Shown here: one piece after another, positions 7,729 through 14,984 of the stretch
How the letters are laid out: every line of letters starts with the position of its first letter
How positions within the stretch are numbered: the first letter of the stretch is position 1
Origin: Cytophagales bacterium
GTDB lineage: Bacteria > Bacteroidota > Bacteroidia > Cytophagales > Microscillaceae
Assembly: GCA_004293905.1 (NCBI GenBank)
Contig: RDZE01000018.1
Location: 1 to 64,000 of the forward strand
Direction: 5' to 3'
Length of the DNA: 64,000 nt
Program-made: the position numbers and the translations under genes
Notes under the pieces: model-generated
What the model was told of the DNA's origin: nothing
The model's database searches: none
The model's input: the letters and a program-made list of their open reading frames with translations, nothing else

Positions 7729-8865
7729 ATGCAACAATATCTCTACGACATAGCCCTTTATCAAATAGAAGGCATCGGGGCAGTGCTCGCACGCCAACTC
7801 ATTGCCTATTGTGGTTCTTCGGAAGCTGCACTGAAAATGTCTGCGGCTTCACTTCAAAAAATACCACAAATAGGGGAGGTTTTAGCCCAAAAAATAACCT
7901 CCCAATCTGCCGCACTTATCAAAAAAGCACACAAAGACCTTGAAGCCATTGCCAAGAATAACATTCAGATAGTAGCCCTACACGAGGAAAACTACCCCAA
8001 AAGATTGCGCGAAATTCATGATGCACCTTTGTTGCTCTACTATCAAGGCAATACGCCCCTCAATGCCCAAAGAGTAATAGCCATAGTAGGTACGCGCCAA
8101 GCCTCTGACTATGGCAAAAGTATTACAGAACAGTTAGTAAAAGATTTGAAAAAATACAATCCTCTCATTGTCAGTGGTTTGGCTTATGGAATAGACATCG
8201 CCGCGCACCGTGCCGCCCTCAAATACGAACTCCCTACACTTGGCGTACTTGCCAATGGTTTAGACCAAATTTATCCCAAAGACCACCTCAAAACAGCCCA
8301 AGAAATGCAACAACAAGGGGGCTTGATTACTGAAAATGCCTTAGGTATAAAAGCAGATGCCACAAGATTCCCCGCCCGCAACCGAATCATTGCAGGACTT
8401 TCAGATGCAACCATCGTAGTAGAAGCGCGTGAAAAAGGAGGGGCTCTCATCACTGCCAATTTAGCCAACGAATACGACCGCGAAGTTTTTGCTGTACCCA
8501 ATGATGTTAATAAAATTAATGCCGTAGGTTGTCATCACCTTATTAAAACCAACAAAGCACACCTGCTCACCGAAGCCGAAGACATCGCCTACTTACTCAA
8601 CTGGGACAATCAACAGCCCAATAAATCTATACATTCGCCACAACTGACCCTCAATCTTTGGCAACAACTCCAAGAAAACGAACAAAAAATAGCACAATTT
8701 ATACAAAAACAAAAAGAGGCAATTGCATCTATCGATGACCTCATTGCGCACCTGCAACTCTCAGCAAGTCAAGTAAATGTGCATTTGTTCAATCTCGAAA
8801 TGCAAGGTATCGTTAGAACACTTCCGGGGAATAAAATACAATTATTGATGCAAATAAAAAATTAG
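7729..8865 (+). CDS. dprA: DNA-processing protein DprA
   Basis: Loads RecA on incoming single-stranded DNA during transformation. The 378 residues have three parts. An N-terminal HhH/SAM-like region begins IEGIGAVLARQL. The Rossmann-like core (about 110-285) contains GTRQASDYG, SGLAYGIDIAAH, LANGLDQIYP and PARNRIIAGLSD. A C-terminal winged-helix domain (about 310-378) contains IDDLIAHLQLS. It is complete. It sits just left of the accessory island, so its 3' side is the chromosomal junction. Confidence 0.95.
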   Translation: MQQYLYDIALYQIEGIGAVLARQLIAYCGSSEAALKMSAASLQKIPQIGEVLAQKITSQSAALIKKAHKDLEAIAKNNIQIVALHEENYPKRLREIHDAPLLLYYQGNTPLNAQRVIAIVGTRQASDYGKSITEQLVKDLKKYNPLIVSGLAYGIDIAAHRAALKYELPTLGVLANGLDQIYPKDHLKTAQEMQQQGGLITENALGIKADATRFPARNRIIAGLSDATIVVEAREKGGALITANLANEYDREVFAVPNDVNKINAVGCHHLIKTNKAHLLTEAEDIAYLLNWDNQQPNKSIHSPQLTLNLWQQLQENEQKIAQFIQKQKEAIASIDDLIAHLQLSASQVNVHLFNLEMQGIVRTLPGNKIQLLMQIKN

Positions 8866-8868
8866 TAA

Positions 8869-8896
8869 CAACATAGTTGCGTCCCATTGGTAGCAA
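8869..8896. repeat. 28-bp repeat, copy 1
   Basis: Begins CAACATAGTTGCG and ends ATTGGTAGCAA. It contains a short imperfect palindrome (GTTG against CAAC). It lies between dprA and the IS200-type transposase, with further copies at 9539 and 14957. Confidence 0.75.
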
Positions 8897-9538: not shown

Positions 9539-9566
9539 CAACGTAGTTGCGTCCCGTTGGTAGCCA
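9539..9566. repeat. 28-bp repeat, copy 2
   Basis: Begins CAACGTAGTTGCG and continues with GTTGGTAGCCA. It differs from copy 1 at three positions. It lies downstream of the transposase and immediately upstream of the first duplicated promoter. Confidence 0.75.
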
Positions 9567-9572
9567 AAACAC

Positions 9573-9610
9573 ACGCATTGATATAAATAAATAAAAATAA
9601 AGAGCGTTTT
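9573..9610 (+). repeat. 38-bp direct repeat, copy 1
   Basis: Starts ACGCATTGATATAAATAAAT and ends GAGCGTTTT. It is identical over 38 bp to 10919-10956, and each copy leads directly into a TTTG-N19-TATATTTG promoter. Confidence 0.9.
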
Positions 9611-9638
9611 GTTTGTATGAATGGTTGTGATATATTTG
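9608..9638 (+). promoter_or_regulatory. Promoter of the YhcG-type nuclease transcript
   Basis: TTTG (9608-9611), a 19-bp spacer and TATATTTG (9631-9638). The same arrangement with the same spacing precedes the GHKL gene. Confidence 0.65.
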
Positions 9639-9660: not shown

Positions 9661-9759
9661 ATGGAAAAAAACGATAAAACCACAGCAGATTATTGATTTA
9701 GAAAAAACTTGAGATTTGAACTCACAGAAACGAAAAATTATTTGACTCAACAACCATGA
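9661..9759 (+). pseudogene. Small reading frame interrupted by TGA, overlapping the nuclease start
   Basis: An ATG 22 bases after the promoter opens a 32-codon frame with an in-frame TGA at codon 12 (9694-9696): MEKNDKTTADY, stop, then FRKNLRFELTETKNYLTQQP. It ends in a TGA that overlaps the nuclease ATG as ATGA. The amphipathic, coding-like second half and the coupling overlap suggest a decayed first gene of the operon or a leader peptide. Chance cannot be excluded for so short a frame. Confidence 0.35.
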
Positions 9760-10835
9760 AATTCCAAGAACTTTTACAAAACATCTCGCATACACACGAC
9801 GAACTGCAAGCAAAAGCCGTTCAGAGTGTCAATCAATCCCTCACTATTCGGAATTGGTGCATTGGAGCATACATTGTAGAGTATGAACAAAAGGGACAAG
9901 ACAGAGCAAAGTATGGCGTAAACCTTTTTGCAACATTAGCCAAAGAACTCAAAACTATCAAGGGTTTGGGGAGTACAGAACTAAAAAAGTGTAGAAAACT
10001 CTACCAAACCTACCCTTTGTTGAATTTTGCTGTTAGGCAAAATCTTTTGCCTGACTCAATTCGACAGACACTGTCTGTCGAATTACAAAATATTGAAAAT
10101 CAAGAGATTGATTTTGCAAAACTTGTTTTAGAAAGGGTTTCTTACTCTCATCTTACGGTTTTAATGAACGTGGAAAACCCCACCAAACGCCGTTATTACG
10201 AAATGCTTACGCTCAAAACCACACCTTCGGTGCGGGAATTGGAAAGGCAAATCAATACGCTTTCCTACGAAAGATTAGGACTTTCAACAGACAAAGATCT
10301 AACTTTTGAACAAATCAAAAAGGCAATAACCGTACAAACGCCCCAAGACGTCGTTAAAGATGTCTATATTTTTGAGTTTTTGGGACTGAAACCACAGCAA
10401 AGTTTTGATGAAAATGACCTAGAAAGTGCCTTGCTTGCTCATTTACAGGACTTTATTTTGGAATTGGGCACCGGTTTTTGTTTTGAAGCAAGGCAAAAAC
10501 GCATTTTGATAGGTGAGGAATATTTTTATATTGATTTAGTTTTTTACCATCGTTTGCTCAAATGCCACGTTTTGATAGAACTCAAAGTAGATAAAATGCA
10601 AGCGGGACACATCGCCCAACTGCAAACCTATCTGAACTATTACCAAGCCGAAATCAAAGAAGAAACCGACAATCCGCCGATTGGTATTTTGTTGGTAACG
10701 GACAAAAACGAGGCACTTGTGCGTTATGCGATGCCTACGCAAGGCAAGGAATTGTTTATCTCGAAATACAAAATCCAACTGCCTACGGAAGAAGAGTTAC
10801 AGAATTTTATTTTGAAGGAACTCAAAAAACGATAA
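9756..10835 (+). CDS. YhcG/DUF1016-type PD-(D/E)XK nuclease
   Basis: A 359-residue protein with the N-terminal DUF1016 helical domain (SVNQSLTIRNWCIGAYIVEY, residues 24-43) and a C-terminal PD-(D/E)XK endonuclease domain. Asp260 (EEYFYIDLVFYH) and Glu275-x-Lys277 (HVLIELK) form the expected active site, followed by the Gln-rich AGHIAQLQTYLNYY helix. These proteins are widespread on mobile DNA next to restriction and other defence genes; the biochemical role of most is unknown. It has its own promoter and lies in the repeat-bounded island beside a GHKL-ATPase defence candidate. Confidence 0.9.
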   Translation: MKFQELLQNISHTHDELQAKAVQSVNQSLTIRNWCIGAYIVEYEQKGQDRAKYGVNLFATLAKELKTIKGLGSTELKKCRKLYQTYPLLNFAVRQNLLPDSIRQTLSVELQNIENQEIDFAKLVLERVSYSHLTVLMNVENPTKRRYYEMLTLKTTPSVRELERQINTLSYERLGLSTDKDLTFEQIKKAITVQTPQDVVKDVYIFEFLGLKPQQSFDENDLESALLAHLQDFILELGTGFCFEARQKRILIGEEYFYIDLVFYHRLLKCHVLIELKVDKMQAGHIAQLQTYLNYYQAEIKEETDNPPIGILLVTDKNEALVRYAMPTQGKELFISKYKIQLPTEEELQNFILKELKKR

Positions 10836-10865: not shown

Positions 10866-10940
10866 ATGGCAACTCCCGAACAATGACAAATAGCAGCACA
10901 ACTGATAGCAGAAAATCTACGCATTGATATAAATAAATAA
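10866..10940 (+). pseudogene. Short interrupted frame upstream of the second promoter
   Basis: ATG at 10866 reads MATPEQ, TGA, then QIAAQLIAENLRIDINK and a TAA. The last seven codons lie inside the 38-bp direct repeat. It looks like the remnant of a small coding sequence cut by the repeat, but it is too short to prove. Confidence 0.25.
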
Positions 10941-10956
10941 AAATAAAGAGCGTTTT
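10919..10956 (+). repeat. 38-bp direct repeat, copy 2
   Basis: Identical to 9573-9610, and 1346 bp downstream of it in the same orientation. Confidence 0.9.
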
Positions 10957-10957
10957 A

Positions 10958-10988
10958 TTTGTTTGTAGTAATTATTATTATATATTTG
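10958..10988 (+). promoter_or_regulatory. Promoter of the GHKL/DUF3883 gene
   Basis: TTTG (10958-10961), a 19-bp spacer and TATATTTG (10981-10988). The ATG follows 49 bp later. The promoter and its upstream 38 bp are duplicated from, or into, the nuclease promoter. Confidence 0.65.
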
Positions 10989-11037: not shown

Positions 11038-14000
11038 ATGGAATACAAAAACTTCATAGAAAATCTTTCACAAAACAATGCAAATTACAATAACCCTGAA
11101 CAGTCTATTACAACAGCTAACCTTTGCGACACTATTTCAAGGGATATAAACACGGATAGCCAACGGTTTATCTACGAACTTTTACAAAATGCTGATGACG
11201 CAAGTAACCAAAGTGGAATACTTGATGTTCGTGTAGATTTTGTCGAAGAATTTGTTGTGGTTTCTCACAAAGGCGAGCCATTTTCTAAAATTGATATTGA
11301 GAGCATATCAAGTGCAGGGGACGGAACAAAAACTGGCGACAGTAATAAGACAGGTTTTAAGGGCATTGGCTTTAAATCTGTTTTTTCGCACTCAAATTTT
11401 GTGATTATCAAAAGCGGAAACTTTTGTTTTAAGTTTGATAAACAGCATTGGGCAAACCATTGGAATAGTGCTTGGGGTGCTCAAAGTGCTTGGAAAGCGG
11501 AACGAAAGACAAAAAACAAAGACGAAAGTCTAAAAATGCCTTGGCAAATTATTCCTATTTGGACAGAATTGCCTAACGAACTCAAAAATTTATCCATTTT
11601 TCAAGAGTATAGCGTATCTACAATTATACGTTATGATAAAATTGAACAACTGAAAAAGGCATTAAATGAGCTATTTTCAGAAAGTCAAATCGTGCTTTTC
11701 TTGCGTAGCAAACAAGTTAAAGTATCCATCAATACGAGCAAAAAAATTGTACTTGAAAAGGGCGTAAGTGGAGAAGTAACCACATTAAAACGCAATGGCA
11801 ATACGCTAAGTGAGTGGCTTATTAAAACCGAGCAGTTCTCTATCCCCTCAGATGTTCAGACAGAAATAAATGCGGACGATAAATCACCTAAAAAACTAAA
11901 AGAAGCAAAAGAAACCGAAATTTCCTTTGCAATTCAGGTTGAAAAAGGCAAGTTGAAAGCAGTTGAAAAAGAAAATAGGTTAATTTTTACATACTTACCT
12001 ACTTCTATTAATTACGATTTCCCTTTTTTGGTAAATGCAAGTTTCTTAACAGATGCGGGTAGACAGCATTTACACCAAGATACATTTTGGAATCAATGGC
12101 TTTTTAAGCAAATTCCCATAAAGTTCTTTTCTTGGGTTGCTAAACTTGCCCACAAGAACAGCAAATACAACAAGCAATTTTTAACCGTTGTACCACACAA
12201 ACTTGGTGGTTCTTTATTGGAAAGCAGTTTTAATGAAGGTTTTGATACAGCACTTCAGACTATTGCGTTTATTCCTAATCTAAAAGGTGATTTGCTTAAA
12301 GTGAAAGAAAGTGTATTTGATAAGACTAATATTTCGCAGTGTATTAATCCCCAAACGCTCATCAACTACATCAACGAAAGCAGAAACGAAAACTTTTCGG
12401 TATCGTCTTATACGCCCTACCTTGAACCACTAAGTACATTAGGTAGGTTAGGTACGGAAATGTTTGATATTGATGATTTAGAAGGCTTTTTTGCTTCGTC
12501 AATATTTAAAAAAGAACACAAATTAAGTGAGAACTTTAACCTGATTTCTTTTCTATACGAACAAGCGCAACGAAACAAGGGAGATGATAACAGAAATGTT
12601 TGGAACGAAATACTACGGCAAACGCCTTTCATTTTTGATGAGAATTTACGATTAAAAAGCCCATTTGAAATATACTCTCCTTCTGCAAAATTTTCAAGTG
12701 AAATTATGAATGATATAAGTATTATACATGAAAGCGTTTTTGAAGACATAAATCAAAATGAGTCTATAAAAAATTGGCTTAGTGATTTAGGTGTCAAAGA
12801 ACCATCAGACTTAAATTTTATAGAGAAAACCTTGATACCTAATCTCAATAATTTTATCAATGAAGATAATACGATAAGTGTATTAAGATTTTTATTCCAA
12901 ATTCATAAAAAAGGTATATTAAGTAATATACATTATTATAAATTTAGGGCAATTAAACTTATTAGTAATAATGGAAGTTTAGTTGTAGCATCAAAGTTAT
13001 ATTTATCCGATTTTTATGAACCTACATTGAAATTAGAAAATTACTTAGAAGATTTTTTGTTTTTAGATAAATCTTATATAGAGAAAAAAGACTCGGTCAG
13101 CATGTGGAAAATTTTTTTTATAAAAATAGGAGTAAAAGAGAAAATAGTTTGGATTAAAAAAAAGATTTCTGCGAACAACATTCATAAACATGAGGGTTAC
13201 TCATTATTTTCGCAAGAAACAGAATTTAATAGGGATACTTACATAAATAACTATCATAGTTACGAATACACTACGTTACTCTTTTTAGAATATACTAATA
13301 ATTATTCGGATTTTTCAAAAATATTCTGGAGTTATGTTTTCAAAAACATTCCGTTTGAAATTAAACCAATTTATGGATATTGGTATAGTGATTATAGAAA
13401 TGAATACCCCAATACTACCAAGCTTGAAGATTATGTAAAATGGTATGTAAGAGAGTGTTGTGGTTTTCCGACAAAGAATGGAAAGTTTGATAATGCTAGT
13501 CCTCAATATATTTTTGATAATAGTATTCCCCAAATAGATGATATTGCTGGAGATTATTTACCAGTAATAAATTATGATGATATAATTCCGCCTGCTTGGG
13601 TAAAATGTTTAAGATTAAAAAAACAAATTTTATTTAAAGATTATTTAGATATTCTAGCAGGAATTGCAAAAGATAAATTATCTAGCGAAATAAAACAAAA
13701 GGAAAACCAAAAACGCATAGGGCTTATTTACGAAAAATTGGCTTTGATGAATCTCCATTCTTCTGAGAAAGAGAAGATAAAAGAATGGGGTAATTCAAAC
13801 AAGTTGTTAGCAAAAAACGGAATAGATTTTTACTATCCAAAAGAATTATCCATTGTTACAGTTGAAGGTTTTAGGGCATCTCATTTGGCATTTACCGAAA
13901 AACAAAGCCCTGAAATCACTGAGTTATTGCGTCTTTTTGGAGTGCAAATCATTGATAAAGTAAATGCGACTATTTCTAATAGCAAAGTTGAGATAACCGA

Positions 14001-14844
14001 CCTTAAAAATAAGTTGTTGCAAACTTCGCCTTTAATTGCATTAGTCGCAGTTGAGAAATCAAAAAATCGCAAAGAATGGGAAAACGAATATGAAAGAATA
14101 AAGCAAAAACTTTCAGCCATTCGTTTCTTTGAAACCACAGAGATTTACTTGTCTTATGGAAACGAAGACGATAAACAAAAGCGGAGTTCTTGGGCTGAAA
14201 ATGATAATTTTTACTATGTTGGCAAGTGGTATAGTCCAAGAGTTTTAGACGGTTTAGTGGAGCCATTAGGCAACTTTCTAAAAATCAGATATGCCGAAAG
14301 GATTTTGACTGTTTTGCTCTTGGAAACATTTGCAGGTGGTATTGAGTACCTCAAAGAAAAAGGGTTTGACATTTCTTTAATACCTGATGCACTACTCAAT
14401 CTCAAAGAGCCAGAAGTTAGAGTAATCAATGAAGGAAATAGACAATACAATCCAACTGATGAAGATTTGGGAAGAAAAGGAGAATTGGTAGTATTTGAAA
14501 AATTAAAACAGATTTACGCACGAAAATACAATAAAAGTGTTGCATATACAGAAACAGGTTTTAAAGTTGGTGGCAAGGTTGAAGTTTTTTGGAAAAACAT
14601 TTCAGAAAATACAACAGCAGACCACGACTTTAAAGTTGTAGAACTCAATAAAGAGATTTATATAGATAGCAAGGCAACAACTTACGGAAAGAATGTTGAA
14701 AAACTTGCCTTGTACATCTCAGGTAACGAGTTGAATTTAATGGAAACAGTGGATAAATACTTAATAGCAAGAGTTTACAACGCTACAAGCGAAAACCCGT
14801 CTGTTGAATTTGTAAGAATGCAAATTGATGATTTTAATGTATAA
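11038..14844 (+). CDS. Large GHKL-ATPase (sacsin-N-terminal-like) protein with C-terminal DUF3883 nuclease-like domain
   Basis: A 1268-residue cytoplasmic protein. Residues about 30-250 form a GHKL ATP-binding fold of the sacsin/NOV type: the N-box is ELLQNADDAS (47-56) and the glycine box is TGFKGIGFKSVF (105-116). The long middle part is not recognisable, and its DNA (roughly 12.7-13.7 kb) is clearly more AT-rich than its neighbours. The end (about 1140-1245) is DUF3883, a PD-(D/E)XK-like fold with Glu1149 (GRKGELVV), Asp1197 (ADHDF) and Asp1210-x-Lys1212 (YIDSK). Related architectures occur in prokaryotic defence islands. A role in anti-phage defence is inferred from architecture and setting, not shown. 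It has its own promoter. Confidence 0.85.
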   Translation: MEYKNFIENLSQNNANYNNPEQSITTANLCDTISRDINTDSQRFIYELLQNADDASNQSGILDVRVDFVEEFVVVSHKGEPFSKIDIESISSAGDGTKTGDSNKTGFKGIGFKSVFSHSNFVIIKSGNFCFKFDKQHWANHWNSAWGAQSAWKAERKTKNKDESLKMPWQIIPIWTELPNELKNLSIFQEYSVSTIIRYDKIEQLKKALNELFSESQIVLFLRSKQVKVSINTSKKIVLEKGVSGEVTTLKRNGNTLSEWLIKTEQFSIPSDVQTEINADDKSPKKLKEAKETEISFAIQVEKGKLKAVEKENRLIFTYLPTSINYDFPFLVNASFLTDAGRQHLHQDTFWNQWLFKQIPIKFFSWVAKLAHKNSKYNKQFLTVVPHKLGGSLLESSFNEGFDTALQTIAFIPNLKGDLLKVKESVFDKTNISQCINPQTLINYINESRNENFSVSSYTPYLEPLSTLGRLGTEMFDIDDLEGFFASSIFKKEHKLSENFNLISFLYEQAQRNKGDDNRNVWNEILRQTPFIFDENLRLKSPFEIYSPSAKFSSEIMNDISIIHESVFEDINQNESIKNWLSDLGVKEPSDLNFIEKTLIPNLNNFINEDNTISVLRFLFQIHKKGILSNIHYYKFRAIKLISNNGSLVVASKLYLSDFYEPTLKLENYLEDFLFLDKSYIEKKDSVSMWKIFFIKIGVKEKIVWIKKKISANNIHKHEGYSLFSQETEFNRDTYINNYHSYEYTTLLFLEYTNNYSDFSKIFWSYVFKNIPFEIKPIYGYWYSDYRNEYPNTTKLEDYVKWYVRECCGFPTKNGKFDNASPQYIFDNSIPQIDDIAGDYLPVINYDDIIPPAWVKCLRLKKQILFKDYLDILAGIAKDKLSSEIKQKENQKRIGLIYEKLALMNLHSSEKEKIKEWGNSNKLLAKNGIDFYYPKELSIVTVEGFRASHLAFTEKQSPEITELLRLFGVQIIDKVNATISNSKVEITDLKNKLLQTSPLIALVAVEKSKNRKEWENEYERIKQKLSAIRFFETTEIYLSYGNEDDKQKRSSWAENDNFYYVGKWYSPRVLDGLVEPLGNFLKIRYAERILTVLLLETFAGGIEYLKEKGFDISLIPDALLNLKEPEVRVINEGNRQYNPTDEDLGRKGELVVFEKLKQIYARKYNKSVAYTETGFKVGGKVEVFWKNISENTTADHDFKVVELNKEIYIDSKATTYGKNVEKLALYISGNELNLMETVDKYLIARVYNATSENPSVEFVRMQIDDFNV

Positions 14845-14956: not shown

Positions 14957-14984
14957 CAACATAATTGCGACCTATTGGTAGTAA
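14957..14984. repeat. 28-bp repeat, copy 3 (diverged)
   Basis: Begins CAACATAATTGCGAC and ends ATTGGTAGTAA. It lies 113 bp after the GHKL gene and closes the accessory island on the right, in the same orientation as copies 1 and 2. Confidence 0.65.

What the first reader, a model, noticed from the sequence alone, without database searches (positions are those of the whole stretch)
11038..14844. Single-gene GHKL-ATPase/DUF3883 candidate for phage defence
The protein joins an ATP-binding GHKL module with full N and G boxes, a 900-residue unrecognised middle and a C-terminal PD-(D/E)XK-like domain with Glu1149, Asp1197 and Asp1210-x-Lys1212 in place. An ATP-gated nuclease would suit defence. The protein lies alone with its own promoter. 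Similar domain fusions have been found in defence islands, but I cannot say whether this exact subfamily has been tested.
Basis: partly seen in the sequence, partly recalled or inferred. Interest (0 to 1): 0.6.

Follow-up and report, generated by a model that had tools for sequence, protein, structure and literature searches.

The report
Tiamat-type phage-defence ATPase with nuclease tail
The gene encodes a Tiamat-type (TmtA) protein, a kind already catalogued as bacterial anti-phage defence; comparing its relatives suggests an ATP-driven switch with one very variable stretch and a tail that can be exchanged, which gives a mechanism to test for a system whose workings are unknown.

Summary
The ORF and the residues named are real. 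The protein is TmtA of the known single-gene system Tiamat (PADLOC model PDLC03972, 1178 bits), so the defence guess is right in kind and the family is not new. Predicted folds support a sacsin/Hsp90-like GHKL ATPase plus transducer (residues 18 to about 411, Z up to 15.6) and a PD-(D/E)XK nuclease (1136-1268, Z 9.3 to the SPARDA nuclease). The catalytic residues persist in 14 of 14 nuclease-type relatives aligned. The gene is patchy, AT-rich and horizontally moved: 94% identical at 1-520 and 896-1115 to a relative whose DprA is only 45% identical. Residues 601-895 are hypervariable (19-30% at 701-800 while both flanks are 88-94%). And the output is exchangeable: of 19 TmtA loci in 390 genomes of the order, 9 carry the nuclease domain and no partner, 10 lack it and are followed at once by an SF1-helicase gene. 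I propose an ATP-gated receptor with a variable recognition segment and swappable output. No activity is shown.

The parts
11038..14844 (+). tmtA (Tiamat), 1268 aa
   Evidence: ORF; PADLOC TmtA PDLC03972 1178 bits
11089..12270 (+). sacsin/Hsp90-like GHKL ATPase plus transducer, residues 18 to about 411
   Evidence: Pfam SACS, NCBIfam NF047352 74.7 bits, cut-off 50, AF2 model, VIA Z 15.6 to Hsp90, 15.4 to MORC3, 13.7 to sacsin SR1
12838..13722 (+). hypervariable segment, residues 601-895 (core 701-800 = 13138-13437); proposed recognition region
   Evidence: sliding identity and dS; trees and AU tests; L017 pieces
14443..14841 (+). PD-(D/E)XK nuclease domain (DUF3883/NOV_C), residues 1136-1268, with E1149, D1197, D1210, K1212
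   Evidence: Pfam NOV_C 21.3 bits; AF2 model; VIA Z 9.3 to SPARDA nuclease, 8.2 to Hjc; residues kept in 14 of 14 nuclease-type relatives
10958..10988 (+). Bacteroidetes-type promoter match TTTG-N19-TATATTTG
   Evidence: 15 matches in the window against 4.3 expected; consensus recalled
9756..10835 (+). neighbour: DUF1016/YhcG PD-(D/E)XK protein, 359 aa, PADLOC candidate PDC-S02
   Evidence: Pfam YhcG_C 176.8 bits and DUF1016_N 84.8 bits; PADLOC 391.5 bits
8929..9390 (+). neighbour: IS200/IS605-type transposase, 153 aa
   Evidence: NCBIfam NF033573 65.5 bits, cut-off 55
9566..9619 (+). 54-nt repeat, copy 1, ahead of the DUF1016 gene; promoter match 9608-9638
10912..10965 (+). 54-nt repeat, copy 2 (91%), ahead of tmtA
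8869..8894 (+). 26-nt repeat R1, just after dprA
   Evidence: three copies in the window, none expected by chance
9539..9564 (+). 26-nt repeat R2, between transposase and DUF1016 gene
14957..14982 (+). 26-nt repeat R3 (85%), just after tmtA

Best explanation
It is TmtA, the single protein of a Tiamat-type anti-phage system, nuclease form, brought in by horizontal transfer. Proposed working: the N-terminal GHKL ATPase plus transducer (residues 18 to about 411) is an ATP-driven dimerising clamp like its fold relatives Hsp90, MORC, GyrB and TopoVI-B. The hypervariable segment 601-895 senses a phage-made trigger. Trigger binding changes the ATPase state and releases the C-terminal PD-(D/E)XK nuclease (1136-1268) on phage or cell DNA. 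In sister systems the same body drives a different output, an SF1 helicase encoded by the next gene. Shown by computation: family membership, the two folds (predicted models), conserved catalytic residues, the hypervariable segment, the exchange of output, horizontal transfer. Inferred: defence activity of this copy, ATP gating, dimerisation, what the variable segment binds, DNA as target.
For: TmtA 1178 bits. GHKL and transducer fold. PD-(D/E)XK fold; E, D, [DE], K present in 14 of 14 nuclease-type relatives aligned. Hypervariable segment: window vs L010 94% at 1-520 and at 896-1115 but 30% at 701-800; L010 vs L011 91% and 90% against 19%; tree path between window protein and L010 0.054 in the flanks, 2.36 in the segment. 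Output exchange: 9 nuclease-only and 10 helicase-only among 19 TmtA loci of 390 genomes; three changes of output forced by starred branches. Horizontal transfer: DprA 45% and 43% identical in the L010 and L017 genomes against 94% for tmtA flanks of L010 and 80-98% for seven of eight L017 pieces; in 390 genomes of the order only 18 have TmtA at E <= 1e-20, and 0 of the 14 other family members.
Against: No assay. NOV_C scores just under Pfam's cut-off in this protein. No PDB chain matched by sequence. The Foldseek hits for the C-terminal half have E >= 0.07; the fold rests on VIA Z 8-9, which the tool calls middling. High variability of 601-895 may be relaxed constraint; the AU test rejects window+L010 only at p 0.026 and does not reject the clade that adds L011 and L013 (p 0.098), and these groups were named after the sliding identities had been seen. 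dS is also high there, so replacement of the segment is as good a reading as positive selection.
Confidence: 0.6

Rival explanations
1. A chaperone-like or DNA-metabolism GHKL protein of the sacsin/MORC type with a nuclease tail, used for stress or DNA repair and not for defence.
For: The best fold matches are Hsp90, MORC, GyrB and TopoVI-B; the gene stands alone in its operon.
Against: PADLOC TmtA 1178 bits; patchy and horizontal distribution; hypervariable segment; a defence-candidate neighbour and a transposase beside it.
Confidence: 0.12
2. A defence protein in which the hypervariable segment is not a sensor but a tolerant linker or the target of a phage inhibitor, and recognition lies elsewhere.
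For: Variability alone cannot tell recognition from escape; two stretches of the segment have pLDDT under 50 in the models.
Against: Outside about 711-740 and 771-800 the segment is modelled at block pLDDT 77-93 with regular secondary structure, and some columns within it stay invariant, unlike a pure linker.
Confidence: 0.3
3. A decayed or inactive copy kept by chance.
For: In a relative (L017) the gene is broken by six identical insertion sequences, so loss does occur.
Against: The window copy is intact; dN/dS against L010 is 0.04-0.06 at 1-520, 896-1115 and 1191-1250.
Confidence: 0.04

Closest known systems
Tiamat (TmtA), PADLOC PDLC03972
   Same: The body, residues 1-1117, matches at 1178 bits; single gene; sacsin/GHKL plus DUF3883 in the nuclease-type members.
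   Different: The variable segment and the C-terminal 150 residues diverge from the model's; the PADLOC TmtA models also cover proteins without DUF3883 that sit with a helicase gene.
Sacsin SR1 / Hsp90 / MORC / GyrB GHKL ATPases
   Same: Fold of ATPase plus transducer: Hsp90 Z 15.6, MORC3 Z 15.4, sacsin SR1 Z 13.7 at 2.8 A over 172 residues.
   Different: These carry no DUF3883 nuclease and no hypervariable segment of this kind (recalled).
DUF3883 / NOV_C restriction-endonuclease-like domain
   Same: Position, D-x-K motif and PD-(D/E)XK fold. A 2013 survey calls DUF3883 'a novel REase domain' fused to SNF2 helicases (PMC3710099, passage seen).
   Different: Here it is fused to a sacsin/TmtA body.
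SPARDA nuclease domain and archaeal Hjc resolvase
   Same: Best structural matches of residues 1136-1268: Z 9.3 and 8.2.
   Different: 14-15% identity in those two rows; other system architecture.

Membership tests
Tiamat (TmtA) | Long match to a TmtA profile | tested here: met
   PDLC03972 1178.1 bits, best stretch protein 1-1117, profile 1-1104 of 1302; six further TmtA models match
Tiamat (TmtA) | Sacsin-like GHKL ATPase at the N-terminus | tested here: met
   Pfam SACS above cut-off, NCBIfam NF047352 above cut-off, fold
Tiamat (TmtA) | Single-gene system, no obligate partner | tested here: met
   No homologue of the helicase partner anywhere in the own genome; the upstream DUF1016 gene has its own promoter match and the downstream gene 15047-15838 matches no NCBIfam model. 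That Tiamat is single-gene is recalled
Tiamat (TmtA) | Protects against phages | not testable with these tools
   No assay possible; the founding paper is not held
PD-(D/E)XK nucleases (DUF3883/NOV_C) | Profile match above Pfam's gathering score | tested here: inconclusive
   21.3 bits against 22.1; relatives L010 28.3, L011 26.0, L014 23.2 pass; L012 21.4 and L078 20.5 do not
PD-(D/E)XK nucleases (DUF3883/NOV_C) | Catalytic residues present and conserved | tested here: met
   Present; kept in 14 of 14 nuclease-type rows that cover the site, with D or E at 1210
PD-(D/E)XK nucleases (DUF3883/NOV_C) | Fold | tested here: met
   VIA Z 9.3, 3.3 A over 106 residues, to 9qcc; most rows are PD-(D/E)XK or related endonuclease folds; predicted model only
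GHKL ATPase (Hsp90/sacsin/MORC/GyrB) | N and G boxes and Bergerat fold | tested here: met
   Invariant E47, N51, D54, G109, G111; fold. Pfam HATPase_c itself is under its cut-off (13.4 vs 26.4)

The most novel reading that the evidence does not exclude
Tiamat is not one single-gene system but a modular immune receptor: a constant ATPase clamp, a hypervariable recognition segment that is replaced between close relatives, and an interchangeable output, either a nuclease in cis (this window) or a dedicated SF1 helicase in trans (in one case with a PIN-like tail), with the outputs swapped at least three times. The helicase form would be an unrecognised two-gene Tiamat.
Probability: 0.55. Interest if true: 0.68.

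Novelty: new member of a known kind. Interest (0 to 1): 0.48.

Why it matters
Tiamat's mechanism is listed as unknown in the papers seen (PMC10482375 and PMC12926258, passages). The comparison gives a concrete division of labour that can be tested by segment swaps and point mutants, and it suggests that the single-gene definition overlooks a partner helicase in about half of the TmtA loci of this order (10 of 19).

Tried and rejected
Empty-site comparison: all 14 other family genomes have DprA only 47-52% identical, so no close relative with the empty site was available. REP-element idea for the 26-nt repeat: its core has only 2 places in the 3.29-Mb own assembly at up to 3 mismatches, both in this island, and the third copy is more divergent; fold z-scores are weak. 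The repeats were not found in the 14 relative loci compared.

Integron cassette: in L010 tmtA lies between two attC-like hairpins, but no integron integrase passed the cut-off in any of 5 genomes and the controls ring too; nothing similar was seen at the window. Phage carriage: no relative in viral contigs, one weak N-terminal hit among 50,697 phage records, 11 hits, none covering 80% of the query, among 72,556 plasmid records and no DNA-level plasmid match.

Relation of the helicase-linked C-terminal domain to NOV_C: profile comparison gives probability 27 only; the best single match (L013) lies partly in body sequence; left open. Positive selection alone as cause of the variable segment: not supported, since dS is raised there as well. 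No known function was assigned to about 420-1130; the structure searches barely tested it.

Literature: searches gave no paper on Tiamat's mechanism, a variable TmtA segment, or a TmtA-helicase pair, judged by listings and the passages read; the library lacks most subscription papers and most preprints.
Full report
What is there. It is a strong match to TmtA, the single protein of Tiamat, in PADLOC: PDLC03972, 1178 bits, best stretch residues 1-1117, with six other TmtA models also matching. Pfam sees SACS (41.5 bits) and a borderline NOV_C/DUF3883 (21.3 bits against a cut-off of 22.1). No solved structure matches by sequence. There is one copy in the own genome of 3.29 Mb.

Folds. Two AlphaFold2 models were made from alignments of window and locus proteins: residues 560-1268 (16 rows, mean pLDDT 79.0, pTM 0.53) and 1-900 (19 rows, 83.9, 0.64). 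Residues 18 to about 411 match GHKL ATPase-plus-transducer modules: Hsp90 Z 15.6, MORC3 15.4, TopoVI-B 14.7, GyrB 14.2, sacsin SR1 13.7 at 2.8 A over 172 residues (Foldseek E 2.2e-9 for Hsp90). Residues 1136-1268 match PD-(D/E)XK nucleases: SPARDA nuclease Z 9.3, Hjc 8.2, then other endonuclease folds; Foldseek alone gave no E below 0.07. Roughly 420-1130 has no assignment.

Conservation of the catalytic sites. In the alignment of 19 relatives, N51, D54, G109 and G111 hold in the rows that cover them. At the nuclease site, 14 of the 14 nuclease-type rows that reach it keep E, D, D or E, and K. Rows not counted: L015 and L036 (site not covered in the stretch used) and three that lack the domain: L013, L030, L021.

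Distribution and transfer. In 390 genomes of the order, 18 (own included) have TmtA at E <= 1e-20; of the 14 other genomes of the family none does, though 5 of those 14 have weak N-terminal GHKL hits at E <= 0.001. In phylum and class samples 9 of 395 (E <= 1e-10, own included, five of them N-terminal hits only) and 5 of 395 (E <= 1e-20, own included) match. The nearest relatives sit in scattered Bacteroidota: 77% L010 (Cytophagales MAG), 72% L011 (Saprospira MAG), 62% L013 over 1-1163, 60% L012 (Pedobacter), 58% L014 (Echinicola), and a broken copy L017 (Saprospiraceae MAG). DprA, a chromosomal gene next to the island, is 45% identical in the L010 genome and 43% in the L017 genome, whereas tmtA is 94% identical to L010 at 1-520 and 896-1115 and seven of the eight L017 pieces are 80-98% identical. 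The gene has 32.0% GC against 37.6% for the window.

Hypervariable segment. Against L010 the identity is 94% (1-520), 69% (521-600), 40% (601-700), 30% (701-800, 74 codons aligned), 44% (801-895), 94% (896-1115), 69% (1116-1190), 95% (1191-1250). L010 against L011 shows 91% and 90% in the two long flanks and 19% at 701-800. L012 against L014, more distant overall, shows only a mild dip (67% to 52%), so the pattern is not equal in all pairs. In L017 the piece matching residues 513-947 is 47% identical while the other seven range from 80% to 98%. dS is raised in the segment too (0.52 at 1-520, 1.6 or more, or saturated, at 601-895 for the window against L010), which favours replacement of the segment by a diverged allele over point-wise selection alone. 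On trees of 17 proteins the window-L010 path is 0.054 in the flanks and 2.36 in the segment; AU tests in the segment reject window+L010 (p 0.026) and window+L010+L011 (p 0.035), not window+L010+L011+L013 (p 0.098); these groups were named after the sliding identities had been seen.

Exchange of output. L013 is 62% identical to the window protein over 1-1163 but its last 170 residues differ, lack E/D/D-x-K, and a gene for an SF1 helicase (Pfam AAA_11, AAA_12) starts on the last base of its stop codon. Its C-terminal part is 54% identical to that of L102, whose body is hardly alignable with it outside the GHKL motifs, and the two helicases are 68% identical. So C-terminal domain plus helicase appear to move together. 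I then classified all 19 TmtA loci of the 18 genomes. Nine have NOV_C at the C-terminus: window, L010, L078, L079, L083, L084, L085, L086, L087; seven score above Pfam's cut-off, while the window (21.3) and L078 (20.5) lie just below. Ten have the helicase gene directly downstream and no NOV_C at E <= 0.05: L076/L021, L077, L106, L107, L108, L109, L110, L111, L112, L113 (L077 has a non-significant 13.9 bits, E 0.057). None has both or neither. The helicase gene starts from 23 nt before to 9 nt after the end of tmtA in these ten. Fisher p = 1.1e-5, not corrected for relatedness; on the tree, where three helicase-type rows were included, starred branches force three changes of output, and L029 (nuclease) and L030 (helicase) are starred sisters. 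Controls: for the nuclease-type loci the fetched neighbourhoods hold no helicase homologue (for L010 only 204 and 372 bases of flank exist), and their genomes are not among the 13 of 390 hit by the helicase search (same sample design; the own genome is listed there as negative). From the helicase side, 12 of 14 hits follow a TmtA-type gene, two of which (L102, L105) were recognised by their PADLOC TmtA scores; L103 lies near a contig edge and L104 follows three other genes. Loci found by other routes agree: nuclease without helicase in L011, L012, L014, L080/L019, L081/L020, L082; helicase without nuclease in L013 and L114. The helicase-linked C-termini share a motif of their own without D-x-K. 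The L076 helicase ends in a PIN-like stretch (by eye).

Mechanism. I take the constant body for an ATP-gated clamp, the variable segment for the recognition part and the C-terminal domain for the output, which in this window is a nuclease in cis. That GHKL clamps dimerise on ATP and that PD-(D/E)XK domains cut nucleic acid is established knowledge of those families (recalled); that this protein does so, and that 601-895 binds a phage product, is inference. The known precedent for DUF3883 as a restriction-endonuclease-like domain is PMC3710099 (passage seen). Papers seen list Tiamat's mechanism as unknown (PMC10482375 and PMC12926258, passages).

Setting. Upstream lie dprA (7729-8865; named from its sequence, by recall), a transposase of IS200/IS605 type and a DUF1016/YhcG nuclease gene that PADLOC lists as a candidate defence gene. 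A 26-nt repeat brackets this cluster (8869, 9539, 14957) and occurs elsewhere neither in the window nor, as far as its core was searched at up to 3 mismatches, in the assembly. A 54-nt repeat with a promoter match precedes both the DUF1016 gene and tmtA. This looks like a small acquired defence island; its mode of entry is not shown.

Verdict. The gene is a new member of a known family. The added value is the architecture seen across relatives: a hypervariable segment and an exchangeable output.

Noticed in passing
L013:11993-13807, L077:6058-7824, L076:6245-8512, L106-L114: SF1-helicase gene directly after TmtA proteins that lack the DUF3883 nuclease; looks like a two-gene form of Tiamat not covered by the single-gene definition.
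   Followed up: yes
   Followed up: partly
L010:1-180 and L010:4096-4320: tmtA lies between two direct repeats that fold as long attC-like hairpins (z -13.3 and -6.2), as if it were a 4-kb integron cassette; no integrase confirmed.
   Followed up: partly
window 9566-9638 and 10912-10988: A 54-nt repeat overlapping the same Bacteroidetes-type promoter match stands before both the DUF1016 gene and tmtA, as if the promoter block had been duplicated.
   Followed up: partly
window 8869, 9539, 14957: 26-nt repeat bracketing the transposase, DUF1016 and tmtA cluster; possible end sequences of the element that brought it in.
   Followed up: partly
L012:3839-5539: DndF-like gene (399.5 bits) near tmtA in Pedobacter; a SoFic-like gene at L014:17020-18114 near tmtA in Echinicola.
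   Followed up: no
L104:259-3281: In one genome the same helicase family follows three small genes with similar starts instead of TmtA, perhaps another system using this helicase.
   Followed up: no
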